Assembly (NCBI GenBank): GCA_027858995.1
Contig: JAQIBP010000061.1
Span: 1 to 64,000 of the forward strand
DNA: 64,000 bases
Source of the DNA: Deltaproteobacteria bacterium
GTDB taxonomy: Bacteria; Desulfobacterota; Desulfobacteria; Desulfobacterales; Desulfobacteraceae
Direction: 5' to 3'
Shown here: in pieces, positions 37,237 through 61,130 of the stretch
Layout: each line of letters begins with the position of its first letter
Position numbering within the stretch: position 1 is the stretch's first letter
Position numbers and translations under genes: made by a program
The notes under the pieces: model-generated
Databases searched by the model: none
What the model was told of the DNA's origin: nothing
What the model saw: only the letters and a program-made list of their open reading frames with translations

Positions 37237-38631
37237 TTATCGAAAAGGCTCAGGGTCAATGGAAAAACGTTTCATAACCTGCTGCAGGGCCTGGCGGTCC
37301 ATATTGCACTGCCTGGCAGCCTGGGTAATATTTCCATTGGCTGCGCTAAGCTTGGCACCAATATAATCATGGTTAAATTCATGGAGCAATTTTTCTTTTG
37401 CCTCTTTATATGGCAGTGAGGCAATAGTGTTGTTATAAGGTCTTTTATGGCTCTCTTTCTCCATTTTTATATCCTTTAAAGGAATATCAGAAAGAGTAAT
37501 ATTGTCTCCTTTTGAATACAAAATTCCTTGAACAATAATATTCTCAAGTTCCCTTACATTCCCTGGCCATGGCTGTTTCATCAAAAGAACCATGACTTCT
37601 TCAGAGATTATTTTTGCCTCTTTATTTAATCTTTTGCACTGCTTTGCAACAAGGTGTTTGGCAAGAATAGGTATATCAGTTATTCTATCTCTTAAAGGAG
37701 GCAGTTCAATTGGAAGAACATTAAGCCTGTAAAAAAAATCCTGCCTGAATTCATGATCTGCAATTTTCTGCTCAAGATCTGAGTTGGTAGACGCAATAAT
37801 CCGCACATCGACTTTTTTAACTTTAGTATCCCCAAGGGGTTTAAACTCCTTCTCCTGGAGGACCCGCAACAGTTTAGTCTGGATGGAAGAACCAATATCC
37901 CCGATTTCATCGAGAAAAATAGTTCCCTTGTCTGCTTCCTGGAACAATCCTATTTTATTGTGGGATGCATTGGTAAAAGCCCCCTTTTTATATCCAAACA
38001 GTTCACTTTCCAAAATTTGTTCTGGAATAGTCGGACAATTAATCGGAATAAAGGATTTGTTTTTCCTCGGGCTTAAAGCATGTATGGATCTTGCTGTCAG
38101 ATCTTTTCCTGTTCCTGATTCCCCTGTTATCAATACAGTGATATCACTTGAAGCCACCATATTGATTTGCTCAAAAACTTTTTGCATGGGTTCACTTTTA
38201 CCAATCAAATCAATGGGAGCAGATTTATTGCTCCTTAAAAGGCGCCTGTTTTCCTTTAACAGCAGGCTTCTTTCAAGGGCCTTCTGGATTTTAAAAATAA
38301 TTTCATCCTGCTCAAATGGTTTTGCAATAAAATCATAGGCACCTTTTTTAATTGCTTTTACAGCTGATTCAATATTTCCGAATGCTGTCAACATCACCAC
38401 GGTCAAATCAGGATAATTAGACTGCATGTATTCAAGCAGCTCAAAGCCATCCATACCCGGCATTCTTACATCACAAATTACAAGATCAAACTCTTCCTGC
38501 GCAAGAATGGATATTGCCATCTTTGCTGAAAAGGCTGAAGAGACCCTGCAATCTATTTCAGGTTCCAGGGTTCTCTGTAAAAGCCTTGTCATATCTTTTT
38601 CATCATCAACTGCAAGTATTCTGGCTTTCAT
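37237..38631 (-). CDS. Sigma-54-dependent NtrC-type response regulator
   Basis: 464 aa from the ATG at 38631, whose ATGA overlaps the stop of the upstream kinase. Receiver 1-120 (ILAVDDEKDMTRLLQR, Asp in LVICDVRMPGMDGFELL, Lys in FIAKPFE). AAA+ domain about 140-375: GESGTGKDLTARSIH Walker A, the sigma-54 contact loop as GAFTNA (consensus GAFTGA), GTIFLDEIGDI Walker B. C-terminal Fis-type helix-turn-helix (NGNITQAARQCNMDRQALQQ). The Gly-to-Asn change in the loop is unusual, though the key Phe-Thr pair is kept. Partner kinase: 38628-40151. Target sigma-54 promoters were not located. Confidence 0.93.
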   Translation of the reverse strand: MKARILAVDDEKDMTRLLQRTLEPEIDCRVSSAFSAKMAISILAQEEFDLVICDVRMPGMDGFELLEYMQSNYPDLTVVMLTAFGNIESAVKAIKKGAYDFIAKPFEQDEIIFKIQKALERSLLLKENRRLLRSNKSAPIDLIGKSEPMQKVFEQINMVASSDITVLITGESGTGKDLTARSIHALSPRKNKSFIPINCPTIPEQILESELFGYKKGAFTNASHNKIGLFQEADKGTIFLDEIGDIGSSIQTKLLRVLQEKEFKPLGDTKVKKVDVRIIASTNSDLEQKIADHEFRQDFFYRLNVLPIELPPLRDRITDIPILAKHLVAKQCKRLNKEAKIISEEVMVLLMKQPWPGNVRELENIIVQGILYSKGDNITLSDIPLKDIKMEKESHKRPYNNTIASLPYKEAKEKLLHEFNHDYIGAKLSAANGNITQAARQCNMDRQALQQVMKRFSIDPEPFR

Positions 38632-40151
38632 TTTTCTTCCCCAATCTGACTCTTTTCTGACTCTTGTACAGCACAAGGCAGACTTATTGTAAAAATTGTA
38701 CCTTTGCCTTTTGTGCTTTCAACACTGATATTTCCATGGTGACGTTTTATAATACCATACCCCACAGAAAGACCAAGCCCTGTTCCCTGTCCAACAGGTT
38801 TTGTTGTAAAAAAAGGGTCAAAAATTTTAGATAAATTCTTTTGTTCAATGCCTTTTCCATCATCTTTGACCAAAATCTGAATATTGCTCGATCCTGTTTT
38901 TTTTGTGGAAATGGTAATATTTCCTTTTCCATCAACTGCATGGCTGGCATTAATCAAAAGATTTATCATTACCTGGGCAATTTCCTGTTCATTACCGAGA
39001 ATATTAAGATTCTCTTTTGAATATGGGTTGAAAATTAATTGAACATTGCGAAAATCGGAATTATTGGATAAAAATTTGATCACACCATCCACCACCTTAT
39101 TTACGTCACTTATAGACATCTTAGACGACCCTTTTCGTGAGAAGGCGAGAAGATCTGATACAACTACTTTACAATTTTTAACATGTTTTTCTATTATTTT
39201 TAAATCATCCTGGGAATCGGGTGCTTCCTTGAGCAATAACTGTGTATAACCGAGAATAATCCCGAGGGGATTATTGATTTCATGTGCAACACCTGCTGAA
39301 AGTTCTCCTATGGCTGCAAGTTTGTCTGCCTGGGCAATCTGTCTTTCCATCTGCCTTTTTTCATTTATATTTTTGATAATAAAATGAAAGGATTTGGTAC
39401 ATCCAAACGCCCCGTAATCAACACCACCTGTCATAAGGACAAGCAGAGATGTATTGTCAGGTCTTGAAAATTCAGCTTCCTCGTTTAAAATATATTCCCT
39501 CTCATCAATTTTATCACGAATTTTTTCCCACTCAACAAAATCAACAAAAAAATCACCAACCATAAGGTCATCCATTGTCATTTCATCATGATTATATCCT
39601 GTAAGTTCAATGCCCGCCTGATTGGTCTCAAGGATTTTAAATTCACTGTCAGTAACAATAATTGTATCCAGAGACTGCTCAAATATCCTGCGGCATTTAT
39701 GTTCACTGCTTGTCAGCATTTCTGTTCTTTCAATGACCTTGTTCTCCAGAGTCTGATTAAGATCAACAAGTTTAATGTGTGTATCTTCAAGTTTTTTGCG
39801 ACCTGAAAGAATCTTTTCATTGATCTTCCAGTTCTGGTTAAAAAAAAGAGTTATAAGCCCGACAAGCATAAATGATGCTGTATTAATACTGCCGGTATAA
39901 GAACTTATGCTGTACCACATATCAGAATTATTGCTGAGCATGAAAAACTGTTTTAAAATATGGCCAAATGATCGTGATACAGCAAAGATTGCAAATCCGC
40001 CGCTGATCCATAACAGATAAAGGAAAACAGCATTGTCAGGATCTAACCCCCTTAATATTTTTGCCTTGTAAAGGCATAGCGGGGCAATAATTACCATGGC
40101 TATGGAACCTATAATATCTACTGTTAGAATGGGAATGGAAGAAGCAATCAT
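38628..40151 (-). CDS. Membrane histidine kinase with PAS domain
   Basis: 507 aa. Three to four N-terminal membrane helices (about 8-115) with His-containing FAVSRSFGHILKQFF, then a coiled coil (SGRKKLEDTHIKLVDLNQTL). PAS domain about 160-275, DHp with GVAHEINNPLGIILGYTQLL (His about 295), and ATPase domain with VMINLLINASHAVDGKGNI, VKDDGKGIEQKNLSKIFDPF and GQGTGLGLSVGYG. Intact NtrB/AtoS-like kinase. It overlaps both its upstream membrane partner (ATGA at 40148-40151) and the downstream NtrC-type regulator, so the three are translationally coupled. Confidence 0.92.
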   Translation of the reverse strand: MIASSIPILTVDIIGSIAMVIIAPLCLYKAKILRGLDPDNAVFLYLLWISGGFAIFAVSRSFGHILKQFFMLSNNSDMWYSISSYTGSINTASFMLVGLITLFFNQNWKINEKILSGRKKLEDTHIKLVDLNQTLENKVIERTEMLTSSEHKCRRIFEQSLDTIIVTDSEFKILETNQAGIELTGYNHDEMTMDDLMVGDFFVDFVEWEKIRDKIDEREYILNEEAEFSRPDNTSLLVLMTGGVDYGAFGCTKSFHFIIKNINEKRQMERQIAQADKLAAIGELSAGVAHEINNPLGIILGYTQLLLKEAPDSQDDLKIIEKHVKNCKVVVSDLLAFSRKGSSKMSISDVNKVVDGVIKFLSNNSDFRNVQLIFNPYSKENLNILGNEQEIAQVMINLLINASHAVDGKGNITISTKKTGSSNIQILVKDDGKGIEQKNLSKIFDPFFTTKPVGQGTGLGLSVGYGIIKRHHGNISVESTKGKGTIFTISLPCAVQESEKSQIGEEK

Positions 40152-40651
40152 TTGCTGTTCACTGATATCTGTTTTTTGTGATCATTAACAAGATTTGAAA
40201 TTCCTTTATAAAGAAACAGCATGGCAGGCACACATAGTAAATGATCAAGCTTTAAAATATAGTATGCAAATCCCAAAAGTTGTGAATCGTTGTAAGTAAC
40301 GATATCCAGTGTCCAGAGGGAAATATTTTCGATTCTGACAGCATGGATCTGGTTATCTAGAAAATGAGCAGTAAAAGCATCTAAGTTCCACAGAACAAAA
40401 AAGAATGCTGAATATTGAATTAAACGCCACCCCTTTTGACTGCCAAGATTTTTTCCTGAAATAGTTAAAATCAAAGCCACCATGGAGAAAAGAAAAAAAA
40501 GATGACCTGCCTGATGGGTAATAATTCCTTCTGAGCTTGCATGAAGCTGCGTGGCATAACACTCAGGGGGAAGCATAGTGACCACTGCAATTGTCAGTGC
40601 CGGGATAATTCTAAAAAGCAGCAATATGTTAAATACTCTCTTTATTGACAT
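40148..40651 (-). CDS. Membrane protein with signal peptide, coupled to kinase
   Basis: 167 aa. N-terminal signal-like helix (residues 10-30, ending near CYATQ), then EGIITHQAGHLFFLFSMVAL and at least three more helices. Histidines are placed at or near helix ends (THQAGH, FTAHFLDNQ, LKLDHLLCVPAM), a pattern that could coordinate heme or metal. No family recognised. It overlaps the kinase start by 4 bases and the preceding DUF106-like gene by 23 bases, so it is probably an accessory sensor component of this two-component system. Confidence 0.7.
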   Translation of the reverse strand: MSIKRVFNILLLFRIIPALTIAVVTMLPPECYATQLHASSEGIITHQAGHLFFLFSMVALILTISGKNLGSQKGWRLIQYSAFFFVLWNLDAFTAHFLDNQIHAVRIENISLWTLDIVTYNDSQLLGFAYYILKLDHLLCVPAMLFLYKGISNLVNDHKKQISVNSK

Positions 40652-41216
40652 ATAGTTTTTTAAAAATTAGTTTTAATATAATAAAAAGGATAAATGATAA
40701 AATAATACAAATAACAAACCAGAATAGAGAACTTATATCCATATGAAAAGATTCTCCAATGGAAAAAGAGAATACCCATTCATCACCAAAGCGTTTTAAG
40801 AGAGTTGCTGGAGTATATACAGTTGTCACATAGGTAGCCATGAACAGTATGGGAATGACATTGGTGATAAAATTTTTCAGCAGACCTTCAAAGAAATAAT
40901 CATAGTAAACCTTGTTCAATTCAGCCTTATCAATATTTCTTGCAAGTCTTTTACCTTTTTCATGGTCAGGATGCTTCATGGCCTCTTCCCGGATGCCCTG
41001 CCAGTGCTCAAACTCTTTCTTTAAGGTGATATATCTTTTTGTCACATAAAATCGTGATATGATTCTTGTTATGCAGACAATTAAAAATGCCATAAGGAAT
41101 ATTACAACTCCTGGACCTAAGAACTCAAGAGGAGAAAAGATAGTATCAATAAATACTACGCTTTTGTTTAAAAAATTTAAAATAACTTCCCAAATTCTAT
41201 CCAGAAAACTATCCAT
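40629..41216 (-). CDS. Membrane protein resembling DUF106/EMC3 (YidC-like) fold
   Basis: 195 aa. One membrane helix (about 34-52), then a long charged amphipathic hairpin (YITLKKEFEHWQGIREEAMK ... HEKGKRLARNIDKAEL), then two helices near 113-132 and 165-185. This helix/coiled-hairpin/helix order with KNFITNVIPILFMATY is what I know from the DUF106/EMC3/TMCO1 branch of the Oxa1-YidC superfamily, here in a bacterium. Resemblance only. Gene order (this, membrane protein, kinase, NtrC regulator) with overlaps suggests it stabilises or inserts the sensor complex. Canonical YidC would be longer and is housekeeping. Confidence 0.6.
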   Translation of the reverse strand: MDSFLDRIWEVILNFLNKSVVFIDTIFSPLEFLGPGVVIFLMAFLIVCITRIISRFYVTKRYITLKKEFEHWQGIREEAMKHPDHEKGKRLARNIDKAELNKVYYDYFFEGLLKNFITNVIPILFMATYVTTVYTPATLLKRFGDEWVFSFSIGESFHMDISSLFWFVICIILSFILFIILKLIFKKLYVNKESI

Positions 41217-41408: not shown

Positions 41409-41490
41409 ATGACCTGCCTTTTTTGCAAACATGGATTAAAATGCAACAAGGCTGCAATTCAGAGCCATAACCAAAAGGGAGGCAGGTCAT
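41409..41490 (+). promoter_or_regulatory. Hairpin masking the transposase start codon
   Basis: ATGACCTGCC (41409-41418) is the exact reverse complement of GGCAGGTCAT (41481-41490), which includes the first two bases of the transposase ATG and sits against the AAAAGGGAGG ribosome binding site. Read-through transcripts from outside would fold and hide the start. A transcript initiated inside the left arm would escape. A regulatory role is inferred from the pairing. Confidence 0.6.
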
Positions 41491-43118: not shown

Positions 43119-43134
43119 GTGTCAACCATATCAG

Positions 43135-43192
43135 GTTTTACATTCAAACAGGTTTTACATTCAAATAGGTTTTACATTCAAACAGGTTTTAC
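43135..43192 (+). repeat. 17-bp tandem repeat at the IS insertion site
   Basis: Three full units of GTTTTACATTCAAACAG (the second has ATAG) and a partial fourth GTTTTAC. A further near copy lies on the other side of the IS (41369-41385). The IS is therefore inserted within or against this array, which may itself be the element's preferred target. Confidence 0.8.
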
Positions 43193-43278
43193 TTGACAAA
43201 AAACAAGCTTTTATCCTACACTCTAAAAAAATTTTTTATGGTTAATTAATAATAAATTAGGATATATGCGTAAGCACC

Positions 43279-47867: not shown

Positions 47868-48164
47868 AATTTTTATTACACCTCAAGGCATTACAGGCCA
47901 ATAGGCCTTTATTTTAAGATGATTATCAAATAAATATGGTTTGTTTAATGTAAAGTTGAATTTATTATATTTTCAGGTCAAAAAAGTATTTTTATCATAA
48001 TTTTGATAATTTAAAATAGTTATATTTCAATTAATTTCAGGTAGTTATATTTTTAGTATATTGAATATTAATCTGTGACAAACCCATTGGCATGCTTATG
48101 GCTATATAAAATTTAGGTTGTTCAATAATTTTTATGTTAATTATTATAAAGGAGGCGTTATAGC
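47868..48164. other. AT-rich intergenic region before the molybdoenzyme gene
   Basis: About 300 bases, very AT-rich from 47930 on. Contains GGCCAATAGGCC at about 47898, a short interrupted palindrome. The promoter of the downstream gene must be here. A strong AAAGGAGG site lies at 48149-48156. No gene seen. Confidence 0.4.
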
Positions 48165-50957
48165 ATGGAGAAGATTTATATGGAATCAAGGGCAAAAAGA
48201 TACCATTTTCTTTCCACCTTGTACCGAGATGAAATTTCACTAGAATTAATTAAAAACATGCAAAAAGAACAATTTCTTACTGGTTTACTTGAATCTGTGA
48301 AAGGCTGTGGATTCATGGATCTCAAAAGTGGTGCAGAGGTCATGGCTTCCTGTCTGAGAAAAGAAGATCCACAAAAATTGTATAAAGAATTAAGCTATGA
48401 TTATGCAGATATTTTTCTCAATGCCGGAGCAAATCCCGTATTCCCCTATGAATCGGCCCATACAGGCAAGAAACCTGTGCTTATGCAAAAACCTGTTGTC
48501 ACCCTCAGAGAGTATTTTAGAAAGTCAGGGGTACACAAAAATCCTGATTTTAAAGATCTTGATGATCACATTGCTGTTGAAATGGAATTTTTAAGATACC
48601 TTCTTGAAAAGCAGGATACAGATATGTATATCAAATTTTTTAAAAATACATATTTAAAATGGGTCAATTCCTTTTGTGATCAACTGTCTACTTCAGCAAG
48701 CTCAGAATTCTATCAGGCACTTGCCCATTTCACACGAGGAGCGTTAATGTGTGAAAATATGCGAATTGATGGTTTCACCAGAGGTGAAGAGACCACCCAG
48801 AAGATGATGGAAGCCTGTGCTATCCTGGATCTTGATTCAGCATATTTCACACTGCAAGAAGGAGTGGTTGAAAAAGAGCCTACAAAGGAAATACCTAGCC
48901 ATTGTTACACCTGCGGTGCCTTGTGCGGTATGACAGCAAAAGTAAAAGACGGTATATTAACAGGTGTTTCAGGACTTCCCGGTGACCCTAAAGGCGGTGG
49001 AAGGATGTGCCCTAAAGGCGCTGCATCTCCAAGTCACCTCTATTCACCGTACAGGCTTAAAGCACCCCTTATTAAAGAGAACGGCCGTTTCCGTAAGGCA
49101 AGCTGGGAAGAAGCCCTTGATGCTGTTGCAAAAGGTATAAAAAGTATAGAACCTGCAAAATTAGGATTCTTCAGAGGCAATGATTTTGTAAACTGGATAC
49201 ATGAAGGACTTTTTGATCATCTGGGATGTCCCAAAATGACCCACAGGCCCATGTGTGACAATGCCAACCGTATGGCAAATGAACATAACCTCAATGACAA
49301 GAGACCGTGGATTAATTATGAGGAATCTGATTATATTATCCATTTTGGTATGAACGAACTTGCCACTTCCTATGGTCAGCGAAAAACTACCCATTTGAAA
49401 GCAGCCCTCAAAAGAGGGGCAAAATTAGTAGTTTTTGATCCCAGAAGATCAGATACAGCTGCTGCTGCTACAGAGTGGATTCCTGTAAAACCTGCAACAG
49501 ATGGTGCTGTTGCGCTTGCCATGTGCTATGTTATTATCAAAAATGAACTCTATGACAAAGAATTTGTCAAAAACTGGACCCACGGTTTTGATGAACTTAA
49601 GAACAGGGTACTTGGCAATGAAGATAAAATTGCCAGAACCCCTGAATGGGCGTCTGAAATCAGTGGTGTTCCTGCAGATACCATAGAACGGATTGCCGTG
49701 GAATTTGCCATGGCTGAAAAGAAAGGTGTTATGTCCTGGACCGGAGTGGCACAAGTTCCCAATGGAATGTATGGGACTGCTGCATTACAGGCTTTGAATG
49801 GACTATGCGGTACATTTGATGCCCCTGGAGGACCATCTCTTCCTTTTAAAAGAAAATTGAAATCTCCATGGGGAGAAGGGCAGGAGAAACCCCCCAAGGG
49901 ATCTGCACCCAAACTCCACAAATATACCATGTGGTCTGGTTGGGGCCCAGCCAATACACTGTCTGCTGTAGAAGCAGGCAAACTCAAAGGAATGATTCTC
50001 TATTTTGGTGATCCAGTCCTTTCCTGTGGTAACCAAGAAGATTCTATAAAAGCCATAGAAAAAATGGAATTTAAGGCTGCCATTGAAGCATATATGTGTA
50101 ATAGCGCCCTGTTGTGTGATGTTATCCTTCCTGATACCACATGGCTGGAACAAAGTCAGATTAAACCTGACTGGCTTTACGAAGCTTTTATTGCCTACTA
50201 TGCAGAAATAGTCGAGCCCATGTATGACACAATGCCTGTGTGGAAAATAACAAAAGAGCTGGCTAACAGGCTTGACCTGGGCAAATATTTTCCATGGGAC
50301 AATATTGAAGATGCATTCCGTAACCAGATGGAGGGCACTCCCTGGTCTTTTGATGAGCTTAAGGCAAAAGGATTTATTATTACAGATAAGGCAGAATATT
50401 TTAAATATAAAAAATGGGGAAGTATTAACCCACCGGAAGGATATGGCAGCTCAGGAAAGAGTAAAACAGGAAAATATAACTTTGTTAACCCTGTTGCTCA
50501 GGAAAAGGGGATAGATCCTTTACCAGACTATAAAGAACCTGACAAAGAGTTACAGGCTGACAAAGAATATCCATTTATTTTTGGTAATTTCCGGCTGTTT
50601 GGTCATGAGCATTCTTCAACTTTTAATAACTTTCAGCTCATGAAAACAAATCAAACAAATTTTTTGTGGATAAATAAAATCGATGCTAGAGAACTTGCCA
50701 TAGCTGAAGGTGACAAGGTCAGACTGCAATCCCCATGGGGCAGTGTGGAAACAGTTGCAAGTCCCACATGGTCAATTATGAAGGGAGTTCTTGGCAGCCC
50801 GGGAGGTTTTGGACATATTCGTGGGATTGAAGGCGATCCTAAGTTTCAAATCTTAGGCGGGATCAACACTCCTAGTATCATGAAATCAGATGCTTCTGAA
50901 AAAGATGGAGGAACCACGATACTAAAATATATAAAAACCAAAGTAGAGAAAATATAA
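48165..50957 (+). CDS. TorD-type chaperone fused to molybdopterin oxidoreductase
   Basis: 930 aa with AAAGGAGG 9 bases before the ATG. Residues 1-215 are a TorD/DmsD-like helical domain (YADIFLNAGANPVFPYESAH, then DDHIAVEMEFLRYLLEKQ). From about 245 a complete DMSO-reductase-family subunit follows: [4Fe-4S] cysteines CYTCGALCG and RMCPKGAAS, then VVFDPRRSDTAAAATEWIPV and GVAQVPNGMYGTAALQALNG. The dinucleotide-binding C-terminal domain starts at about 800 (FIFGNFRLFGHEHSSTFNNF). The Mo ligand may be the Cys in RPMCDNANR (about 363), as in polysulfide/thiosulfate reductases. No Tat signal can exist in front of TorD, so the enzyme is probably cytoplasmic. No FeS or membrane subunit is adjacent. 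Confidence 0.88.
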   Translation: MEKIYMESRAKRYHFLSTLYRDEISLELIKNMQKEQFLTGLLESVKGCGFMDLKSGAEVMASCLRKEDPQKLYKELSYDYADIFLNAGANPVFPYESAHTGKKPVLMQKPVVTLREYFRKSGVHKNPDFKDLDDHIAVEMEFLRYLLEKQDTDMYIKFFKNTYLKWVNSFCDQLSTSASSEFYQALAHFTRGALMCENMRIDGFTRGEETTQKMMEACAILDLDSAYFTLQEGVVEKEPTKEIPSHCYTCGALCGMTAKVKDGILTGVSGLPGDPKGGGRMCPKGAASPSHLYSPYRLKAPLIKENGRFRKASWEEALDAVAKGIKSIEPAKLGFFRGNDFVNWIHEGLFDHLGCPKMTHRPMCDNANRMANEHNLNDKRPWINYEESDYIIHFGMNELATSYGQRKTTHLKAALKRGAKLVVFDPRRSDTAAAATEWIPVKPATDGAVALAMCYVIIKNELYDKEFVKNWTHGFDELKNRVLGNEDKIARTPEWASEISGVPADTIERIAVEFAMAEKKGVMSWTGVAQVPNGMYGTAALQALNGLCGTFDAPGGPSLPFKRKLKSPWGEGQEKPPKGSAPKLHKYTMWSGWGPANTLSAVEAGKLKGMILYFGDPVLSCGNQEDSIKAIEKMEFKAAIEAYMCNSALLCDVILPDTTWLEQSQIKPDWLYEAFIAYYAEIVEPMYDTMPVWKITKELANRLDLGKYFPWDNIEDAFRNQMEGTPWSFDELKAKGFIITDKAEYFKYKKWGSINPPEGYGSSGKSKTGKYNFVNPVAQEKGIDPLPDYKEPDKELQADKEYPFIFGNFRLFGHEHSSTFNNFQLMKTNQTNFLWINKIDARELAIAEGDKVRLQSPWGSVETVASPTWSIMKGVLGSPGGFGHIRGIEGDPKFQILGGINTPSIMKSDASEKDGGTTILKYIKTKVEKI

Positions 50958-50959: not shown

Positions 50960-51331
50960 ATGACTATAGCAGCCGTAAAATCAATTTTCATTGGTGTCGG
51001 TGGATCCTTGATCCTTGCTGTTTTTTGCTCAACCTTTATTGCAATGGATAAAATTTTACTTATCATGCCCCTGTTTATCGCCTTTAATGGCGCAATGACC
51101 GGTTACAGACTGGTGGAAGTTCTGAAAAATCAGATTAAAAATATTCCTGTTTTTTCTCTGGTGCTTGGAATTGGCTGCGGAGCATTAACCTTTGTTGCTG
51201 TAAATTTTGCAGGATCATTTATCCAAGGTGTATTATTGCTTCATATTTATGATTTGCTGATTTACATGGCAGTATCAGGATTTACAAGTTATCTGGGGGC
51301 AAAACTTGCTGTCAGATATTTTAATTTATAA
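50960..51331 (+). CDS. Small four-helix membrane protein
   Basis: 123 aa, beginning 2 bases after the molybdoenzyme stop and thus co-transcribed. Four hydrophobic segments (about 8-26, 32-47, 62-85, 92-115) with few charges (RLVEVLKNQIKN loop). No heme-ligand His pair or Cys cluster as in NrfD/PsrC-like quinol-oxidising subunits; it is far too small for those. Role unknown, perhaps an accessory to the permease downstream. Confidence 0.7.
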   Translation: MTIAAVKSIFIGVGGSLILAVFCSTFIAMDKILLIMPLFIAFNGAMTGYRLVEVLKNQIKNIPVFSLVLGIGCGALTFVAVNFAGSFIQGVLLLHIYDLLIYMAVSGFTSYLGAKLAVRYFNL

Positions 51332-51340
51332 AAGGCACGG

Positions 51341-51406
51341 CCTGTCCTGAATAGGACAGGTCACAAAATAATATGAAAGAGTTGAAATTTAAATTCACTC
51401 TTTCAT
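51341..51406 (+). promoter_or_regulatory. Two consecutive hairpins between membrane protein and permease genes
   Basis: CCTGTCC-TGAATA-GGACAGG (51341-51360) followed by ATGAAAGAGT/ACTCTTTCAT (51373-51382, 51397-51406), both perfect. Neither is followed by a T-run, so they are more likely mRNA processing or stability structures than terminators. The second overlaps a spurious upstream ATG of the next gene. Confidence 0.55.
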
Positions 51407-51444
51407 ACAAAATTTATAATATTTTTTTAAAAAAGGAGAACCAA

Positions 51445-53136
51445 ATGAAGAAAACGTGTATCTATTTTATTATGATGACGCTTGTTTTATTATTGACTGC
51501 GTCGGGATCTTTTGCCCAGGGAATATCATCATCTTCCTATAAAGCAGGAGATATGGTTGAGGTTACAGGTAAAATTGCTCCGGGCCAGGATTTATATGTT
51601 GCCATTGCCCAAACTGACATGTTTGCACCAAAAGACACTGATGGCGCATTTGAAATTAAAAGATTTGAAAAGGATAGTAAAAAGGCAGGATTTGCCTTAG
51701 ATACAAAGATTCCACCCCTTTATTACATGATTACCAATGTACCGGAAAAATTCGGTAAGGTAGACAAGAAAAGATTTGGCGGTCCTTCGGTTCTTCTCAA
51801 AAAAGGACAGGGGATTTACAGCACCACCATGTTCTATCTGAAAAAGAAATTAGGTGATGTGGATGCAACGGCCCGCGGTATGCTCGGACCAATCAAATCA
51901 GATGATCAGTGGAATTTTTTCAGGTATGCCAATGAGGGTTCATATGGTATCAATACCATTGTTAAAGAAGGTAACAGAAAAGGTAAAGTTGTTATTTTTT
52001 CACGATCCATCATTGGTGACGAATCAAACGGTAATTACTGGGACAAGGGCACATCCATAAAATTGGATAAAGCAACCGGCGAGTTTACAGCCTCTTTTAA
52101 ATCTTTCAGACATACTCCTCCTGACACCAAATTTGATGTTTATGTGAATGGTGCAAAAATCGGCGACTATAATGTAGAGAAAAATGGATTCTGGCTCTCC
52201 AAGGCTTATAGGTATATGAATCCTTTATGGATTGTTATCGGTGCTATTCTCGTGGGAACCTATTTCTCCATGATCGGTGCAGCCGGTGGTATGCTCATGG
52301 CAGCTTTCCAGGTGCTGGTAGTTAACACCATGGGCCCTGTGGGTATAAATGCAGCCAATGTATTAAAACCTTCCAATATTGCACTGACACTGTTTTCTCC
52401 TCTTGGATCATTCTACCGGTATGCAGTGGTTGAAAAACGTGTTGCATGGCCAGTCGGACTCTCCTTTGGTGTGGGTATTTTTATTGGCTCCATCTGGCTT
52501 GGTAAATATGTATCAGCAATTCTTCCCATGAAAGCTTACAAAGAATGGCTGGCTATCCTGGTGGTTATCATGGGAATTAAGACCCTTATGGAAATGACTC
52601 CAAAGGCCATGAATAAAAGAAAAAATATCAAGGCCATGACCCAGAAATTTAATAAAGAAGTTGCCGCAGCCAAAGCTGAGGGACGTTCAGCACAAATGGG
52701 CAGTATTGAACCCGTAAAAACAGGTTTGACCGATTACAGGTTTAAATTCTGGGGTGAAGAATTCACGATCAACCCATTGCTTTTTGCATTCCTTGGTATT
52801 TTTATTGGTATCGTATCCAGATCCTTTGGTATTGGCGGCGGCTTCCTTCTCGTTCCTGCCATGACCACTCTGGCTGCTCTTCCCATGTATGTGGCAGTTC
52901 CTATATCCTTGATCGGTACCTGTTTTTCTAGTATCGGCTCCTTTATCGGATATCTCATGGCAGGATACCTGCCTGACATGACACTTGCCATTGCCATTAT
53001 TATCGGCGGGTTTGCAGGTGGTATGCTTGGCAGCCGTGCACAGAAAATGTTCTCTGAAATGACCTTAAAGGTTGTTCTTGCAGTTACACTGTTTTTCTTA
53101 TTCTTCAGGTTCTTTAAGATTGAAATCTGGATTTAA
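51445..53136 (+). CDS. TauE/SafE-type permease with large extracytoplasmic N-terminal domain
   Basis: 563 aa from the ATG at 51445 (AAGGAG 7-8 bases upstream); the frame is open from 51373 but the extra 24 residues would precede the signal peptide. Signal peptide about 1-24 (LVLLLTASGSFAQG). Extracytoplasmic beta-rich domain about 25-250 (VEVTGKIAPGQDLYVAIAQT). Then two blocks of helices typical of TauE/SafE anion permeases: WIVIGAILVGTYFSMIGAAG and GIVSRSFGIGGGFLLVPAMT, separated by a charged cytoplasmic loop (KAMNKRKNIKAMTQK). Family members move sulfite, sulfoacetate, taurine or similar. Downstream of the molybdoenzyme, so sulfur-oxyanion handling is the natural guess. Ends at a good terminator. 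Confidence 0.85.
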   Translation: MKKTCIYFIMMTLVLLLTASGSFAQGISSSSYKAGDMVEVTGKIAPGQDLYVAIAQTDMFAPKDTDGAFEIKRFEKDSKKAGFALDTKIPPLYYMITNVPEKFGKVDKKRFGGPSVLLKKGQGIYSTTMFYLKKKLGDVDATARGMLGPIKSDDQWNFFRYANEGSYGINTIVKEGNRKGKVVIFSRSIIGDESNGNYWDKGTSIKLDKATGEFTASFKSFRHTPPDTKFDVYVNGAKIGDYNVEKNGFWLSKAYRYMNPLWIVIGAILVGTYFSMIGAAGGMLMAAFQVLVVNTMGPVGINAANVLKPSNIALTLFSPLGSFYRYAVVEKRVAWPVGLSFGVGIFIGSIWLGKYVSAILPMKAYKEWLAILVVIMGIKTLMEMTPKAMNKRKNIKAMTQKFNKEVAAAKAEGRSAQMGSIEPVKTGLTDYRFKFWGEEFTINPLLFAFLGIFIGIVSRSFGIGGGFLLVPAMTTLAALPMYVAVPISLIGTCFSSIGSFIGYLMAGYLPDMTLAIAIIIGGFAGGMLGSRAQKMFSEMTLKVVLAVTLFFLFFRFFKIEIWI

Positions 53137-53160
53137 CCCTTAAGGGATAAATGAACCTTG

Positions 53161-53217
53161 AAACCCGTGTGCTGAATCTTTATAATAGCTGAATCAGCCA
53201 CGGGTTTTATTTTTTTA
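53161..53217 (+). terminator. Rho-independent terminator after the permease gene
   Basis: AACCCGTGTGCTGA pairs with TCAGCCACGGGTT (one bulge) around a loop of about 20 bases and is followed by TTATTTTTTTA. Confidence 0.8.
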
Positions 53218-53324
53218 TTGCACTTACTAATATAAAATCTTTCTTTGTGTTCCTGGATTTTCAATGCTACGCTAAAAAAAGTATTCATAAAATATAATCA
53301 AAAAATCATAGCTGGTTATAAATC

Positions 53325-55976
53325 ATGCAGATAAAAAATTTATTCAGATACTGGACTTTTCAAATGTTTTCCCCTGGAACTGTTTTAAGGGAAAAATATG
53401 AAGCTTTTAAAAAGCTATTGGAATATGATAAAAAAGCCCATGAATTCATGGCTGAACTCGAAGATATATTTTACAATCAAAAAAAAAATGATTTCCAGAC
53501 TGTTGTAAAAACCTATGACCAGTTTGCTGCTTCAGCTTACGGTATGGTTGAAGAGCTTTTAAAAATGTGCCCCTCCAACTATTGGAGTTTGAAGGACTAT
53601 TTTAAAAAATTTGATTTTTATATAAGGTTCATGCTTGCTCCGCCAGACTTTGATTTTTCACCGCCATTTACAATTGAGTTTAATAAAATATCATCATTTG
53701 ATGAAGCAATAGCAGGCAAAAAAGCTTTTTGCCTCTCTCATCTGAACAGAGAACTTCATCTGCCCACACCCAATGGCTTTGTCATTACAACCAATGCTTT
53801 TCATTATTTTTTACAAGCCAATGATTTACAGGATGCCATTAATGAAAAATTGACCAAATTGGACATAAGCGATGTCTCATCATGTGAGCAGATAAGTATA
53901 GAAATCAGAACAATGATACTAAATGCAGATGTCCCAGATGATATTGTCATAGCCTGCGACAATGCCATGAAAAGTTTTGAAGCCAGAGGCAATATCAATT
54001 GCAGGTTCGCGCTTCGAAGCAGTGCTGTAAAAGAAGATGGAGAAATTTCTTTTGCCGGCCAGTATAAAACCATGTTAAATATGGGCAAAAATGATATTTT
54101 CAATGGGTATAAACAGGTCATTGCAAGCAAATACTCTTCCCAGGCACTTTTTTACAGAATCAGCCATGGAGTTCCTGACCATGATACTCCCATGGCGGTA
54201 TTGGTCATTGAAATGATTGATTCAAAATCATCTGGAGTAATATATTCCAAAGATATTGAAAACCCCCTTTCAGACAATTTGTTAATTCATTCTATCTGGG
54301 GACAGGGAGAGCTTCTTGTGGAAGGAGAAGCTGCCTGCGATCTTATTGCAATCTCAAAGAAAGAACCAGACAAGATTGACAGCATTAAAATTGCTGCAAA
54401 AGAGAAACAGATGGTGCTGTCCCAAAATCATTCAGCTAAAGAGAGTCAAATCAAAAATGATCAAATAGAGGAAAATCAAACAAGAATAATTGATACAAAA
54501 AAAAATCTAACCTATGATCTCTCCTTAGATGAATTTTCTGCATTAACCCTTGCAAGATGGGCAGTAAGCCTTGAGAACCATTTTAATCAACCCCAGGATA
54601 TTGAATGGTGTCAGGATCAATCCGGCAAACTTTTTATTCTCCAGTCAAGGCCCCTGAATATACATCGGGATATACATTTAGATAAAATCCAAAATACAGC
54701 AAAACAAAACAAAGTTCTTAAAATTATAAATGGCATTAAAATTGATAATAAAATTATCTGCTCCAAAGCCCAAACCGTATGCCGTGGAGTCGGATCAGGC
54801 TCAGTTTACAGGCTTGAACAGATATCACAAATCACACAAATTCCCAACGGATCAGTGCTTGTGGTTAAACATGCTCTGCCACAATTTGTCATCGCCATAA
54901 ACAAAGTAAATGCTATTATTATAGAGTCAGGAAGCTTTGCAAACCATTTTGCATCCATTGCAAGAGAATTTAAAATTCCAGCAATTGTAAATATACGCAA
55001 TGGATTTAATAATCTTGTACAGAGAAATTGTGTGACCGTGGATGCAGACAGAGGCATAGTGTACGATGGGATTGCAACCCCTTTAATGGGAAATATCAAA
55101 CCCAGAGAAGACAATTTTAAAAACAGCTCTTTTATGATCAAACTGCGGTATGTAATTAATTTTGCAGCTCAACTAAAACTCACAGAGCCTGAATCTGATT
55201 CTTTTGCACCCGAGGCATGCAGATCTCTGCATGATATCATCAGGTTTGTCCATGAAACAGCTGTCAGAGAAATGTTTTCAATCGGCAAGAGAAAAGGAGG
55301 GCGAAAAAAAGGAGCTAAAAAACTTATATTAAATATACCCATGCTCTTTTATGTCCTTGATGTAGGTTCTGGCATAAACAATAATCAAAAAAACGCAAAG
55401 ATATTAAAATCTGATGATATTGCAAGTATTCCCATGCAGGCAGTATTAAAAGGACTTTTACATCCTGGAATCTGCTGGTCGGAAACAACTCATTTTGACT
55501 GGGAAGAGTATGACAGGATTGTCATGGCAGGTGGTATTATCAGTGCAGATTCATCCATGTTTGGAAGCTATGCAGTGTTGTCAAAGGAATATTTGAATGT
55601 AAACTTCAGGTTTGGATATCATTTTGTTATTTTAGATACTATATGCTCTTCTTCCAAAGAAGATAATTATATACTTTTCAGATTTTCTGGCGGCGGGGGC
55701 ACTCCGGAAGGGAGAACCATCAGAGCTAAGTTTATTAAAGGCATTTTAACAAGACTTGGATTTATGGTTCAAATCAAATCTGATCTTATTGATGCTGAAT
55801 TTAAGAATGGGTCATTAAAAATCATGGAAAAAACTCTTGATATGACAGGACGACTGCTCGGAACTACAAAACTTATGGATATGTACCTTAAAAAAGACTT
55901 GGATATAGAATTTCTAATTGACGATTTTATGAATGGGCGATATGATTTCCGCTCAACAGTGAATGATAAGCCATAA
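53325..55976 (+). CDS. PEP/pyruvate-binding and phosphohistidine-swivel protein (PPDK/PEP-synthase-like)
   Basis: 883 aa, cytoplasmic. After a helical N-terminus (1-115), the PPDK N-terminal nucleotide domain runs from about 120 to 450 (AIAGKKAFCLSHLNREL, CRFALRSSAVKEDGEISFAG, DIEWCQDQSGKLFILQSRPL). The swivel domain (about 495-580) has ESGSFANHFASIAREFKIPA, aligning with the GGxTSHAAIxARE phosphohistidine motif. His (about 540) is kept, but the first Gly and the Ser before His are changed. There is no PEP TIM barrel; residues 580-883 are an unfamiliar domain (FRFSGGGGTPEGRTIRAKFI). This resembles rifampin-phosphotransferase-like or phosphotransfer proteins with unknown acceptor. First gene of an operon with a DSP-YkgJ fusion and a GAF protein. 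Confidence 0.82.
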   Translation: MQIKNLFRYWTFQMFSPGTVLREKYEAFKKLLEYDKKAHEFMAELEDIFYNQKKNDFQTVVKTYDQFAASAYGMVEELLKMCPSNYWSLKDYFKKFDFYIRFMLAPPDFDFSPPFTIEFNKISSFDEAIAGKKAFCLSHLNRELHLPTPNGFVITTNAFHYFLQANDLQDAINEKLTKLDISDVSSCEQISIEIRTMILNADVPDDIVIACDNAMKSFEARGNINCRFALRSSAVKEDGEISFAGQYKTMLNMGKNDIFNGYKQVIASKYSSQALFYRISHGVPDHDTPMAVLVIEMIDSKSSGVIYSKDIENPLSDNLLIHSIWGQGELLVEGEAACDLIAISKKEPDKIDSIKIAAKEKQMVLSQNHSAKESQIKNDQIEENQTRIIDTKKNLTYDLSLDEFSALTLARWAVSLENHFNQPQDIEWCQDQSGKLFILQSRPLNIHRDIHLDKIQNTAKQNKVLKIINGIKIDNKIICSKAQTVCRGVGSGSVYRLEQISQITQIPNGSVLVVKHALPQFVIAINKVNAIIIESGSFANHFASIAREFKIPAIVNIRNGFNNLVQRNCVTVDADRGIVYDGIATPLMGNIKPREDNFKNSSFMIKLRYVINFAAQLKLTEPESDSFAPEACRSLHDIIRFVHETAVREMFSIGKRKGGRKKGAKKLILNIPMLFYVLDVGSGINNNQKNAKILKSDDIASIPMQAVLKGLLHPGICWSETTHFDWEEYDRIVMAGGIISADSSMFGSYAVLSKEYLNVNFRFGYHFVILDTICSSSKEDNYILFRFSGGGGTPEGRTIRAKFIKGILTRLGFMVQIKSDLIDAEFKNGSLKIMEKTLDMTGRLLGTTKLMDMYLKKDLDIEFLIDDFMNGRYDFRSTVNDKP

Positions 55977-55994
55977 TATTTAAAGGAGGCCTGA

Positions 55995-57032
55995 ATGTCA
56001 CCATACAGTGTCACCTGGATAACAAACAGCCTATCTGTAGGGCGTGCACCAATGTCTTATGCCGAGTTTGAATCCATAAAAGCACAGGGAATTGATGCCA
56101 TTGTAAACCTTTGTGCCGAATTCAGCGACCTTCATGAGCTTGAAGAGTCTTCAGGCTTTGAAGTCTATTATCTTCCCATATGGGATGAAGATATTCCCAA
56201 AATAGAAGCCATGGAAGATGCACTTGCCTGGCTTGATGAGGCAATTTATCTTGGGAAAAAAGTACTTGTTCACTGCAGGCACGGAATTGGAAGGACAGGT
56301 ACCTTTGTTACCTCATATATGATTAGAAGAGGGCATACTCTAAAAGCTGCGGAAAAAAAATTAAAATCATCAAAGGCAAACCCTTCCAATTACGGGCAGT
56401 GGAAACTGTTAAGAAAATATGGGAAAAAATCAGGAGTTCTGAAAATAAGAGAACCCTCCTTAGAAATTAAAAACAGAGTTGATCTCAATCCTTTTTTTTC
56501 TGATTATGAATCACTTATAAAAAAAATTGATCAGGAAGTAAAAAATCAACCAGAACAAGATGGTATCAGCTGTGGCAGAGATGATTCGACCTGCTGCTCT
56601 GCACCCTTTACTATTCAGTTGATAGAGGTTATTTATCTGCATTCCAAAATAAACAGACACTTTACCTCTGCACAGAGAGAGACACTGATTTTAAGAGCAG
56701 TTAAAACCTATAAAAAAGAGAGTATTTTATTATGCCCGTTCAATAAGAATTCATGCTGTGAAGCATACGAGATAAGACCTGCAAGATGTCGAATTTATGG
56801 AGCACATAAATTTTCTAAAGACAAACAGGAAATTCAAGACCTGTTGCTTGAACTCTCTCAAACCCTGTTTCTTGCCTTTTCAGGAAAATTTCAACCGGAT
56901 ATGAATTTTACATTTACCACAGCAGACACTATTTCAGGAAAATTTGTTCAAAAATGTTTTCACTATATGTCTGATATTGAAAGAGAGAAAAAAGCATTGG
57001 GAAAAATGATCACACAAGAGATGACAAAATGA
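55995..57032 (+). CDS. Dual-specificity phosphatase fused to YkgJ-type Cys cluster domain
   Basis: 345 aa; AAGGAGG site. Residues 1-150 are a DSP/PTP-type phosphatase: LVHCRHGIGRTGTFV is the CX5R loop (Cys about 94, Arg about 100), with the general-acid Asp likely in LPIWDEDIPK. Residues about 190-330 form a YkgJ/UPF0153-like domain: CGRDDSTCCSAPF, LCPFNKNSCCEAYEIRPARC and RIYGAHKF hold the Cys set that would bind Zn or an Fe-S cluster. Fusion of the two is unusual. It sits 18 bases after the PPDK-like gene and overlaps the next gene by ATGA. Possibly a phosphatase opposing the phosphotransfer protein, with a redox- or metal-sensing module. Confidence 0.85.
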   Translation: MSPYSVTWITNSLSVGRAPMSYAEFESIKAQGIDAIVNLCAEFSDLHELEESSGFEVYYLPIWDEDIPKIEAMEDALAWLDEAIYLGKKVLVHCRHGIGRTGTFVTSYMIRRGHTLKAAEKKLKSSKANPSNYGQWKLLRKYGKKSGVLKIREPSLEIKNRVDLNPFFSDYESLIKKIDQEVKNQPEQDGISCGRDDSTCCSAPFTIQLIEVIYLHSKINRHFTSAQRETLILRAVKTYKKESILLCPFNKNSCCEAYEIRPARCRIYGAHKFSKDKQEIQDLLLELSQTLFLAFSGKFQPDMNFTFTTADTISGKFVQKCFHYMSDIEREKKALGKMITQEMTK

Positions 57033-58708
57033 TACAGGATAAAACAATGAATTTTTTTCACCTCTTTTTGAAGGTGACCCGTATGATTACCTCAACACTT
57101 GACCCTGAAAAAGTATTGGATGTGATTGTACAAAATGTACCTGAAGTTATAGGAGTTGATGCTGCCACCATAAGACTTATTGATCCGGCAGGTAAAAATC
57201 TTCTGCTTGTTGCTTCCTTTGGGCTAAGCCAGGAATATTTAAACCGCGGCTGCATAGATGCTGAACTAAGTGTTACCAAAGCTTTGTCGGGTACGCCCGT
57301 GGCTATCCATGATGCGCTTTCATATCCCAATATTCAATATCCCGAAGCTATAAAAAAAGAGGGTATAAAAAGTCTTTTAATTGCCCCTGTTATAGTGAAA
57401 AACAAGGTTACCGGAGTTTTGAGGCTGCTCACAAAAAAACCGCGGATATTTAAAACCAGTGAAATTGAATTTATTGAAGCTTTGGCAGAGCAGTGTGGTA
57501 TTGCCATTGAAAATGCCAGGGTTTATGAAGAGCAGAATCGCCAGATACGATATCTTAAGAGCCTTAAAGAGATCGGCAGGGTTATAAACTCCACCTTTGA
57601 ACTGAAAGAGGTGCTTGATTTTATTGTTACCAAAATTCCAGAGGTTATGGATCTGAAAGGATGTACTATCAGGCTTCTTGATCCTGTGAAAGGCCATTTA
57701 GACCTGGTGGCAGCTTCTGGTTTGAGTGAAGAGTATCTCGGCAGAGGAAGCATTGATGACGAGCTTAGCACTCACCAGGCATTGAAAGGTGAGCCCGTGA
57801 TCATCCATGATGCTGCCAGTGATCCAAGGATAGCCTATCAGGAAAATGCAGAAAAAGAGGGTGTGGCAAGTATTCTCGCTGTTGCCATTGTAGTAAAAAA
57901 AAGAGTTCTCGGGGTCTTAAGACTTCTGACCTCTGAAAAACGCAATTTTTCAGATGCCCAGATCAATTTTGCCACTGCCATTGCAGAGCAGGGAGGCATT
58001 GCCATCCAGAATGCAAAAAGTTACAGCAAAATCACAAAACTCATAACAGAACTGGAACAGCATGAGGATTTTCTCCAGATGGTTATTGACAGCCTCCAGG
58101 CCGAGCTGCTCGTAATAGACATTGATCATCATATTATAATGGTCAACCATGCTTTTCTCAAAAACAATGATTTAAAAGAAGATGACATTGTGGGTAGAAC
58201 CTACAACGAGATTCTTGCTGTTTGCAACTTAGATGACTGTCCCTTAAAACATATTGAAAATGGAGAACAAACATCTGTCTGTCTGAGACAGATTAAGGAT
58301 GGTGATAAAGAAAGATACCTTGAAGAGATGGCCACTCCTGTTTCAGCCTTTGGCAAAGAAAAAGGAACGGGATTTAATATTATAACCATAAGGGATGTGA
58401 CAGATCATATTCAGCTTAAAGAAGAGCACAAAACAAAGGAACGGCTCCAGGGAGTGCTGGAAATGGCAGGAGCAGCAGCTCATGAATTGAATACACCAAT
58501 ATTTTCAGCACTGGGAACAGCACAATTAGTACTTGATGATCTAAACGATCAACAATTGCAGGATGATCTTAAGACCATCATAAAAAATCTTAATACCGTG
58601 TCAGAGCTCACAAAAAAAATGACCCAAATTACCAAATACGAAGCAAAAGAATATGTAGGTGATACAAAGATTGTTGATATTCAAAAAGCTGCTGAAACAG
58701 ATCATTAA
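57029..58708 (+). CDS. GAF-GAF-PAS protein with DHp domain but no ATPase domain
   Basis: 559 aa. Two tandem GAF domains of nearly the same sequence type (about 15-165 and 185-335; compare TIRLIDPAGKNLLLVASFGL and TIRLLDPVKGHLDLVAASGL), then a PAS domain (about 350-460, VIDIDHHIIMVNHAFLKNND) and a DHp helix pair with GAAAHELNTPIFSALGTAQL (His about 485). The protein ends about 70 residues later (ITKYEAKEYVGDTKI) with no N, G1 or G2 box, and no ATPase fragment follows in any frame, so this seems to be a natural end. It may serve as a phospho-acceptor or dimerising sensor for a kinase in trans. Confidence 0.88.
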   Translation: MIQDKTMNFFHLFLKVTRMITSTLDPEKVLDVIVQNVPEVIGVDAATIRLIDPAGKNLLLVASFGLSQEYLNRGCIDAELSVTKALSGTPVAIHDALSYPNIQYPEAIKKEGIKSLLIAPVIVKNKVTGVLRLLTKKPRIFKTSEIEFIEALAEQCGIAIENARVYEEQNRQIRYLKSLKEIGRVINSTFELKEVLDFIVTKIPEVMDLKGCTIRLLDPVKGHLDLVAASGLSEEYLGRGSIDDELSTHQALKGEPVIIHDAASDPRIAYQENAEKEGVASILAVAIVVKKRVLGVLRLLTSEKRNFSDAQINFATAIAEQGGIAIQNAKSYSKITKLITELEQHEDFLQMVIDSLQAELLVIDIDHHIIMVNHAFLKNNDLKEDDIVGRTYNEILAVCNLDDCPLKHIENGEQTSVCLRQIKDGDKERYLEEMATPVSAFGKEKGTGFNIITIRDVTDHIQLKEEHKTKERLQGVLEMAGAAAHELNTPIFSALGTAQLVLDDLNDQQLQDDLKTIIKNLNTVSELTKKMTQITKYEAKEYVGDTKIVDIQKAAETDH

Positions 58709-59194: not shown

Positions 59195-59200
59195 TTTATA

Positions 59201-60631: not shown

Positions 60632-60659
60632 TAGATTCGCTGTTACGGGATGAAATTTT

Positions 60660-60773: not shown

Positions 60774-61130
60774 TCAGCCAAGAACCTGCTCAACCTTCTC
60801 TTCAAGTTCATCCTTATCAATAGGCTTGACACAGTATTCAGCAGCACCAAGACTTAAACACTCCCTTGCTGTTTCAATGGTGGGGTAACCTGTAAGCATG
60901 ATAACCTTAATTAAAGGGGAAATTTTCTTTAATTCCTCCAAAACTTCAACACCGCTCATCTTTTTTAATTTTATATCTAAGATAGCAAGATCAATCCCAT
61001 TAGACTTTACAAATTCTATGGCATCTTCCTCTTCTGAAAATGCAAAAACCTTGTGCCCTTTTCTTTCAAGAATACGTTTAATTAGATTGGCTGCATCTGA
61101 TACATCATCCAATGCGAGAATATTAGCCAT
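60774..61130 (-). CDS. Stand-alone response regulator receiver
   Basis: 118 aa, a single CheY-like domain. Acidic pocket DD in ILALDDVSDAANLI, phospho-acceptor Asp in LAILDIKLKKMSG, Thr in VIMLTGYP and Lys in YCVKPIDK. No output domain, so it acts by protein contact or as a relay. Located 43 bases after the Cys-rich membrane kinase and transcribed with it, so it is probably its direct target. Confidence 0.9.
   Translation of the reverse strand: MANILALDDVSDAANLIKRILERKGHKVFAFSEEEDAIEFVKSNGIDLAILDIKLKKMSGVEVLEELKKISPLIKVIMLTGYPTIETARECLSLGAAEYCVKPIDKDELEEKVEQVLG

What the first reader, a model, noticed from the sequence alone, without database searches (positions are those of the whole stretch)
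48165..50957. TorD chaperone and molybdopterin oxidoreductase in one polypeptide
TorD-family chaperones normally act in trans and guard Tat signals of separate catalytic subunits. Here the chaperone domain replaces the signal position, so cofactor loading occurs in cis and the enzyme likely stays in the cytoplasm. A possible Cys Mo ligand suggests a sulfur- or arsenic-type substrate.
Basis: partly seen in the sequence, partly recalled or inferred. Interest (0 to 1): 0.65.

Follow-up and report, generated by a model that had tools for sequence, protein, structure and literature searches.

The report
Molybdenum enzyme fused to its chaperone
In a family of sulfate-reducing bacteria and Archaeoglobus, a molybdenum (or tungsten) enzyme carries its own assembly chaperone as a permanent front domain where related exported enzymes have an export signal, so it probably matures itself and stays inside the cell; what it acts on is unknown.

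Summary
One 930-residue gene (48165-50957, +) encodes a TorD/DmsD-type chaperone (about residues 1-220), a short linker and a complete DMSO-reductase-superfamily catalytic chain (about 240-930). It is not an artefact. I recovered 55 distinct full-length fused relatives from Desulfobacterota (including cultured Desulfosarcina widdelii, Dethiosulfatarculus sandiegensis and Desulforhopalus vacuolatus) and Archaeoglobus. No unfused member was found, and the clade has one origin (SH-aLRT 100). Among TorD hits listed from 297 Desulfobacterota genomes, only this family had TorD inside a long open frame. The TorD fold was confirmed by an independent model (Z 18.6 to YcdY, 17.6 to DmsD). The predicted Mo/W ligand Cys364 is present in 55/55, as are all four [4Fe-4S] cysteines. 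None of the 55 has a twin-arginine signal.

The cytoplasmic, self-chaperoned reading is well supported but inferential. The sulfur/arsenic substrate reading is weak: Cys ligands also occur in nitrate reductase and acetylene hydratase, PsrA's Arg332 and His145 and acetylene hydratase's Asp13 are not conserved, and no curated catalytic family reaches its cut-off. The gene is linked to a TauE/SafE protein, two-component regulators and a sigma-54-like promoter. New variant of a known kind; substrate and electron partner unknown.

The parts
48165..50957 (+). Fusion gene: TorD-type chaperone domain + Mo/W-bisPGD oxidoreductase, 930 aa
   Evidence: open frame; Pfam; 55 full-length relatives; AF2 model pLDDT 87.4, pTM 0.89
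48165..48824 (+). TorD/DmsD-type domain, residues 1-220 (motifs YAD-FLN, NP--PYES, DDH)
   Evidence: separate model Z 18.6 to YcdY, 17.6 to DmsD
48825..48896 (+). linker, residues 221-244; Gly233 invariant
   Evidence: alignment of 55 members
48885..49046 (+). [4Fe-4S] domain, residues 241-294; Cys247, 250, 254, 282 and Lys284 invariant in 55/55
   Evidence: Pfam PF04879
49053..50270 (+). molybdopterin oxidoreductase domain, residues 297-702
   Evidence: Pfam PF00384
49254..49256 (+). codon of Cys364, predicted Mo/W ligand
   Evidence: aligned with metal-ligand Cys of 2vpw and 2e7z; Cys in 55/55
50583..50816 (+). molydopterin dinucleotide-binding domain, residues 807-884
   Evidence: Pfam PF01568
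48088..48103 (+). sigma-54-like -24/-12 promoter TGGCATGCTTATGGCT
   Evidence: 21 of 52 upstream regions have a site at p<=0.05 against shuffles, about 2.6 expected; none in the two archaeal members scanned
48148..48155 (+). ribosome binding site AAAGGAGG
   Evidence: sequence
50960..51331 (+). small hydrophobic, probably membrane protein, 123 aa; family found in 7 loci
   Evidence: no Pfam match; conserved neighbour
51373..53136 (+). TauE/SafE-family membrane protein with a large N-terminal domain, 587 aa; single copy in this genome
   Evidence: Pfam PF01925; single copy; TauE-family gene in 27 of 53 sampled neighbourhoods
53325..55976 (+). PPDK_N/PEP-utilizer protein, 883 aa, conserved neighbour
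55995..57032 (+). dual-specificity phosphatase-like protein, conserved neighbour
57029..58708 (+). GAF/PAS histidine-kinase-like protein, conserved neighbour
60774..61130 (-). single-domain receiver; relatives sit directly upstream of the fusion gene in about 17 other loci
40629..41216 (-). probable membrane protein, conserved neighbour (cluster c7)
   Evidence: no Pfam match
40148..40651 (-). probable membrane protein, conserved neighbour (cluster c3)
   Evidence: no Pfam match
38628..40151 (-). PAS histidine kinase, conserved neighbour
37237..38676 (-). NtrC-type sigma-54-dependent response regulator, conserved neighbour

Best explanation
This is a member of a discrete family of cytoplasmic Mo- or W-bisPGD enzymes whose TorD-type maturation chaperone is a permanent N-terminal domain. 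SHOWN by sequence and models: one continuous chain; TorD fold; complete catalytic chain with a [4Fe-4S] site and an invariant Cys at the metal-ligand position; no Tat signal; one origin; the two halves have diverged together; linkage to a TauE/SafE membrane protein and to sigma-54/two-component regulators. INFERRED: the TorD domain holds the nascent catalytic domain open or protected during insertion of the cofactor, then stays docked on it; with no Tat leader the enzyme remains in the cytoplasm; the two-component genes switch it on through a sigma-54 promoter when its substrate or a related signal appears; the TauE-type protein moves a related anion (sulfite, sulfonate or another small oxyanion) across the membrane; electrons come from a soluble donor encoded elsewhere, because no conserved iron-sulfur or quinol-reacting subunit accompanies the gene. 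The most likely reaction is reduction of a small sulfur oxyanion or organosulfur compound, but the evidence does not determine the substrate (confidence in that last step about 0.3).
For: TorD fold. Catalytic fold nearest to ArrA (Z 36.5) and PsrA (35.3). 55 of 55 full-length relatives fused, with four cluster Cys, Lys284 and Cys364 all invariant and no RR motif. Gap between fused members (catalytic profile 1192 bits or more) and the best unfused homologue outside the family (382 bits). Single clade, SH-aLRT 100. TorD and catalytic distances correlate, r = 0.83, 0 of 2000 permutations as high. Only this family has TorD in a long frame among the hits listed from 297 genomes. pTM 0.89 over 930 residues suggests a defined placement of the TorD domain on the catalytic body (inference). 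TauE neighbour and regulators. Sigma-54-like sites. No conserved CxxCxxCxxxC neighbour: 8 of 67 loci have any such ORF. dsrA above cut-off in 11 of 15 fusion genomes, split in G024, fragmentary in G038; aprA in the window's genome.
Against: No experiment shows cis maturation, location, metal or substrate. The TorD domain evolves about 1.5 times faster than the catalytic part, which fits a supporting role but also a decaying one. Only 13 of 27 complete neighbourhoods contain TauE, so the transporter link is not universal. The window's own genome (97% complete) shows no dsrA above cut-off.
Confidence: 0.6

Rival explanations
1. The TorD domain no longer works as a chaperone. It is a fixed structural or docking domain, for example for an electron donor or a regulator, on an enzyme that matures without help.
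For: The domain diverges about 1.5 times faster than the catalytic part; the full-length model suggests it is packed onto the enzyme (pTM 0.89).
Against: The TorD signature residues Y80, A81, F84-N86, P91, P94, Y95, S97 and W166 are invariant in 55/55 and H135 is kept in 52, more than a spacer would need.
Confidence: 0.2
2. The TorD domain also acts in trans on other Tat-exported molybdoenzymes; the fusion carries two separate jobs.
For: The PYES and DDH motif regions typical of TorD proteins are kept although this chain has no leader.
Against: The genome has a separate TorD gene beside its Tat-signalled molybdoenzyme; in the neighbourhoods mapped the fusion gene is not accompanied by a conserved exported catalytic subunit.
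Confidence: 0.08
3. The catalytic part performs a non-redox reaction, as acetylene hydratase does (a soluble cytoplasmic enzyme with one [4Fe-4S] cluster and no redox partner).
For: No conserved redox partner gene; acetylene hydratase is among the closest solved structures (2.8e-45; Z 33.4) and shares the Cys ligand.
Against: The catalytic Asp13 of acetylene hydratase aligns with Gly251, which is Gly, Leu or Asn in members; the tree places acetylene hydratase elsewhere.
Confidence: 0.1
4. It is an ordinary thiosulfate/polysulfide reductase (PhsA/PsrA type) that happens to be fused and cytoplasmic.
For: Best sequence match in the PDB is PsrA and in NCBIfam is PhsA.
Against: 280 bits against a PhsA cut-off of 694; PsrA Arg332 and His145 are replaced by Gly in 55/55; lies outside the PhsA/PsrA clade; no PsrB/PsrC-type partner.
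Confidence: 0.1

Closest known systems
Polysulfide/thiosulfate reductase catalytic subunit (PsrA/PhsA)
   Same: Fold, domain order, [4Fe-4S] motif, Cys at the Mo-ligand position; best sequence match
   Different: PsrA/PhsA are exported and work with FeS and membrane subunits; here a TorD domain is in front, no such partners, PsrA Arg332/His145 absent, PhsA cut-off not reached
TorD/DmsD/YcdY redox enzyme maturation proteins
   Same: All-helical fold, conserved motifs, association with bisPGD enzymes
   Different: Those are separate proteins acting in trans; this one is covalently part of the enzyme
MOLY cluster (MolyA, MolyB, MolyC) of sulfur disproportionators (PMC12998232)
   Same: bisPGD enzyme and TorD/DmsD chaperone encoded together in Desulfobacterota
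   Different: MolyC is a separate gene; MolyAB are predicted extracellular and MolyB is a second enzyme subunit; the fusion has none of these
Acetylene hydratase
   Same: Fold, single [4Fe-4S] cluster, Cys ligand
   Different: Catalytic Asp13 not conserved, no TorD domain, different place in the tree
Arsenate respiratory reductase ArrA
   Same: Best structural match by Z (36.5, close to tied with PsrA)
   Different: Far below the ArrA family cut-off (131 against 1600 bits); no ArrB-type partner

Membership tests
TorD/DmsD (NarJ-type) chaperone family | family fold and profile match | tested here: met
   PF02613 8.6e-21 above gathering score; Z 18.6 to YcdY and 17.6 to DmsD
TorD/DmsD (NarJ-type) chaperone family | separate protein acting in trans on a Tat-signalled partner | tested here: not met
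   covalently fused in 55 of 55 members; no Tat motif in the chain
TorD/DmsD (NarJ-type) chaperone family | assists cofactor insertion | not testable with these tools
   needs biochemistry
DMSO reductase (Mo/W-bisPGD) superfamily | Fe4S4, molybdopterin and dinucleotide-binding domains in order, with superfamily fold | tested here: met
PhsA/PsrA thiosulfate/polysulfide reductase | curated family score | tested here: not met
   280 of 694 bits
PhsA/PsrA thiosulfate/polysulfide reductase | PsrA active-site residues Arg332 and His145 (roles recalled from memory) | tested here: not met
   aligned positions Gly527 and Gly338 are Gly in 55 of 55
PhsA/PsrA thiosulfate/polysulfide reductase | position in the PhsA/PsrA clade | tested here: not met
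   outside a starred (98) set that holds PhsA and PsrA, in a quick tree with long branches
Acetylene hydratase | catalytic Asp next to a cluster Cys (Asp13) | tested here: not met
   Gly251 here; Gly, Leu or Asn in members
Arsenate respiratory reductase ArrA | curated family score | tested here: not met
   130.8 of 1600 bits
MOLY cluster | separate MolyA, MolyB and MolyC genes in synteny | tested here: not met
   fused gene without an FeS-subunit neighbour

The most novel reading that the evidence does not exclude
A lineage of sulfate-reducing bacteria and Archaeoglobus uses a self-chaperoned, cytoplasmic Mo/W enzyme with a new substrate (sulfur oxyanion, sulfonate or a non-redox reaction), in which the TorD domain is both assembly factor and permanent part of the working enzyme. 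As far as the searched literature shows, it would be the first natural case in which a TorD-type chaperone acts wholly in cis.
Probability: 0.3. Interest if true: 0.7.

Novelty: new variant of a known kind. Interest (0 to 1): 0.52.

Why it matters
TorD-type chaperones have been studied as separate proteins that read Tat leaders, so it has been hard to separate leader protection from cofactor insertion. A natural single-chain version without a leader would let the insertion role be tested by itself: remove or mutate one domain and measure the cofactor in the other. It also marks a conserved, regulated and uncharacterised enzyme in sulfate reducers, including Archaeoglobus, a candidate for an undescribed step in sulfur metabolism.

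Tried and rejected
Artefact of assembly: rejected, 55 independent fused relatives. Two proteins made by internal re-initiation: an in-frame start with a ribosome site before the Fe4S4 domain occurs in only 3 of 50 genes and at differing places, so it is not a conserved feature. E. coli plasmid hit CP027641 seemed to be a second fusion (one tblastn piece over 86% of the query); it is two adjacent genes, torD then a Tat-signalled catalytic subunit. G211:C57, a match over 67-891 with a stop inside, looks like the same situation (not examined further). Substrate from neighbours: no metabolic gene is conserved across loci; a sulfate-adenylyltransferase-like gene, CoA-transferases and a multihaem cytochrome appear only in single lineages. 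Whole-chain structure search did not list TorD chaperones because the catalytic domain filled the list; the domain was therefore modelled and searched alone. A first sigma-54 scan used a wrong spacing and was discarded, then repeated. Literature: eight searches for the fusion, its cluster or its Pfam pair found no paper describing it; the library lacks most subscription journals, so absence is not proof. Pereira et al. 2011 on sulfate reducers is not held. Placement of the catalytic clade beside the genome's own Tat-signalled paralogue has support 94 with long branches and is not relied on.

Full report
OBSERVATION. The gene at 48165-50957 (+) is one open frame of 930 codons, with AAAGGAGG 9 bases before its ATG. 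Pfam places PF02613 (TorD/NarJ-type) at 69-171, the Fe4S4 domain at 241-294, the molybdopterin domain at 297-702 and the dinucleotide-binding domain at 807-884, all above gathering scores. The NCBIfam TorD profile covers 3-194.

THE FUSION IS REAL AND CONSERVED. Full-length fused relatives were found in the window's genus and order (92, 74, 69 and 56% identity), in 67 loci of a species-level genome collection, nearly all of this family, and in a sample of 395 Desulfobacterota genomes. They come from Desulfobacterales- and Desulfobulbales-type bacteria, including the cultured Desulfosarcina widdelii PP31, Dethiosulfatarculus sandiegensis SPR and Desulforhopalus vacuolatus DSM 9700, and from Archaeoglobus-assigned assemblies. 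Fifty-five distinct full-length members carry both domains. The high-scoring one-domain hits lie on contigs cut at an end, and L101 is broken into several frames. A profile of the catalytic part scores 1192 bits or more on intact fused members and at most 382 on the unfused homologues outside the family. In a quick maximum-likelihood tree the fused catalytic parts are one side of a branch with support 100. The two halves have diverged together (distance correlation 0.83, 0 of 2000 permutations as high), the TorD half about 1.5 times faster. When 297 Desulfobacterota genomes were searched with the TorD profile, the six family members sat in frames of 933-988 codons, and every other listed TorD match, about a hundred, sat in a frame under 450 codons. 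So the fusion is exceptional in this phylum and arose once among the sequences seen.

TorD FOLD. Residues 1-232 modelled alone give pLDDT 91 and pTM 0.90. The best solved matches are all redox enzyme maturation proteins or their relatives: YcdY Z 18.6, DmsD 17.6, an A. fulgidus maturation protein 14.6, NarJ 12.8, TtrD 11.8. The best unrelated chain scores 5.8. Invariant or nearly invariant residues include Y80-A81-D82-x-F84-L85-N86, P91, P94-Y95-x-S97, W166 and H135 (52 of 55).

CATALYTIC PART. The full-length model has pLDDT 87.4 and pTM 0.89. With the TorD domain making up a quarter of the chain, a pTM this high suggests a defined placement of that domain on the enzyme; this is inference, because pairwise errors were not available. 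Nearest structures are ArrA (Z 36.5, 667 residues aligned, rmsd 3.6) and PsrA (35.3, 656 residues, rmsd 2.5), which are close to tied, with acetylene hydratase at 33.4. Cys247, 250, 254 and 282, Lys284 and Cys364 are invariant in 55 of 55. Cys364 aligns with the metal-ligand Cys of PsrA and acetylene hydratase. The Arg332 and His145 positions of PsrA (roles recalled from memory) are Gly527 and Gly338 in 55 of 55, and the Asp13 position of acetylene hydratase is Gly251 (Gly, Leu or Asn in members). No curated NCBIfam catalytic family reaches its cut-off; the best match, PhsA, reaches 280 of 694 bits. The enzyme class is clear and the substrate is not.

LOCATION. No member has a twin-arginine motif in its first 80 residues, and internal initiation that could free the catalytic half is not conserved. 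The same genome offers a control: contig C102 holds a Tat-signalled catalytic subunit (MTKDFNRRDFF...) beside a separate TorD gene, FeS proteins, an NrfD-like membrane protein and multihaem cytochromes. The fused gene has none of these beside it. Only 8 of 67 loci have any nearby ORF with a CxxCxxCxxxC motif, and none is conserved.

NEIGHBOURHOOD AND CONTROL. Conserved neighbours are a TauE/SafE protein, mostly of about 560-590 residues with a large N-terminal domain (27 of 53 sampled neighbourhoods, 13 of 27 complete ones; single copy in the window's genome), an NtrC-type regulator, PAS and GAF histidine kinases, a single-domain receiver directly upstream of the fusion gene in about 17 loci, a PPDK/PEP-utilizer protein, a phosphatase and small probable membrane proteins. 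In the window these lie on both sides, at 37237-41216 (-) and 50960-61130, with an IS110-family transposase and a GGDEF/HEAT-repeat protein between. A sigma-54-like -24/-12 site, TGGCATGCTTATGGCT, lies at 48088-48103; 21 of 52 upstream regions have such a site at p <= 0.05 against shuffles where about 2.6 are expected, and the two archaeal members scanned have none. The regions are related to each other, so these counts are not independent. Of 15 fusion genomes, 11 have dsrA above cut-off; it is split in G024, fragmentary in G038 and not found above cut-off in the window's genome, which does have aprA. The carriers are thus mostly sulfate-reducing or sulfur-disproportionating lineages.

INTERPRETATION. 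The most economical reading is a cytoplasmic Mo/W enzyme that carries its own maturation chaperone, under sigma-54/two-component control and linked to transport of a small anion. Shown: architecture, fold, conservation, origin, absence of a Tat signal, linkage. Inferred: cis maturation, cytoplasmic location, permanent docking, soluble electron donor. Guess: sulfur oxyanion or organosulfur substrate.

KNOWN WORK. The closest described arrangement is the MOLY cluster, with separate MolyA, MolyB and MolyC and predicted extracellular location (PMC12998232). A survey of NarJ-subfamily chaperones (PMC4464133) contains no occurrence of 'fused' or 'fusion' in its main text. Eight further searches found no description of the fusion, within an open-access library only.

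Noticed in passing
window 41489-47550: An IS110-family transposase (41489-42598) and a 1423-aa GGDEF/AAA/HEAT-repeat protein (43279-47550) lie between the two parts of the conserved neighbourhood that are contiguous in relatives such as L039 and L049.
   Followed up: partly
L062, L063, L064, L065, L105, L084 (ORF just upstream of the fusion gene): Single-domain receivers directly upstream of the fusion gene have lost the usual phospho-acceptor Asp motif in one subgroup (VDIALLSNAEG), while others keep it (VDLAILDIKL): possible pseudo-receivers.
   Followed up: no
L015, L016, L018, L021 and similar: A separate group of about 694-aa molybdopterin proteins in the same genus begins directly at the Fe4S4 motif with no Tat signal; L015 scores 619 bits against the PhsA model (cut-off 694): an apparently cytoplasmic PhsA-like group without a TorD domain.
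   Followed up: no
L043 (G000 contig C102) 2236-13149: Cluster of a Tat-signalled molybdoenzyme, two FeS proteins, TorD, an NrfD-like protein and multihaem cytochromes, with FdhE/MoeA-like genes nearby; resembles a MOLY/CISM operon.
   Followed up: partly
G000 (whole genome): No dsrA above cut-off in a 97%-complete assembly that does hold aprA; most likely an assembly gap.
   Followed up: partly
L112 4869-7715: E. coli plasmid CP027641 carries torD directly upstream of a Tat-signalled molybdoenzyme, with FeS and membrane subunits after it; the record is nearly unannotated.
   Followed up: partly
L101 6388-9145: The fusion gene is broken into four frames in this assembly (pseudogene or sequencing errors).
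   Followed up: no
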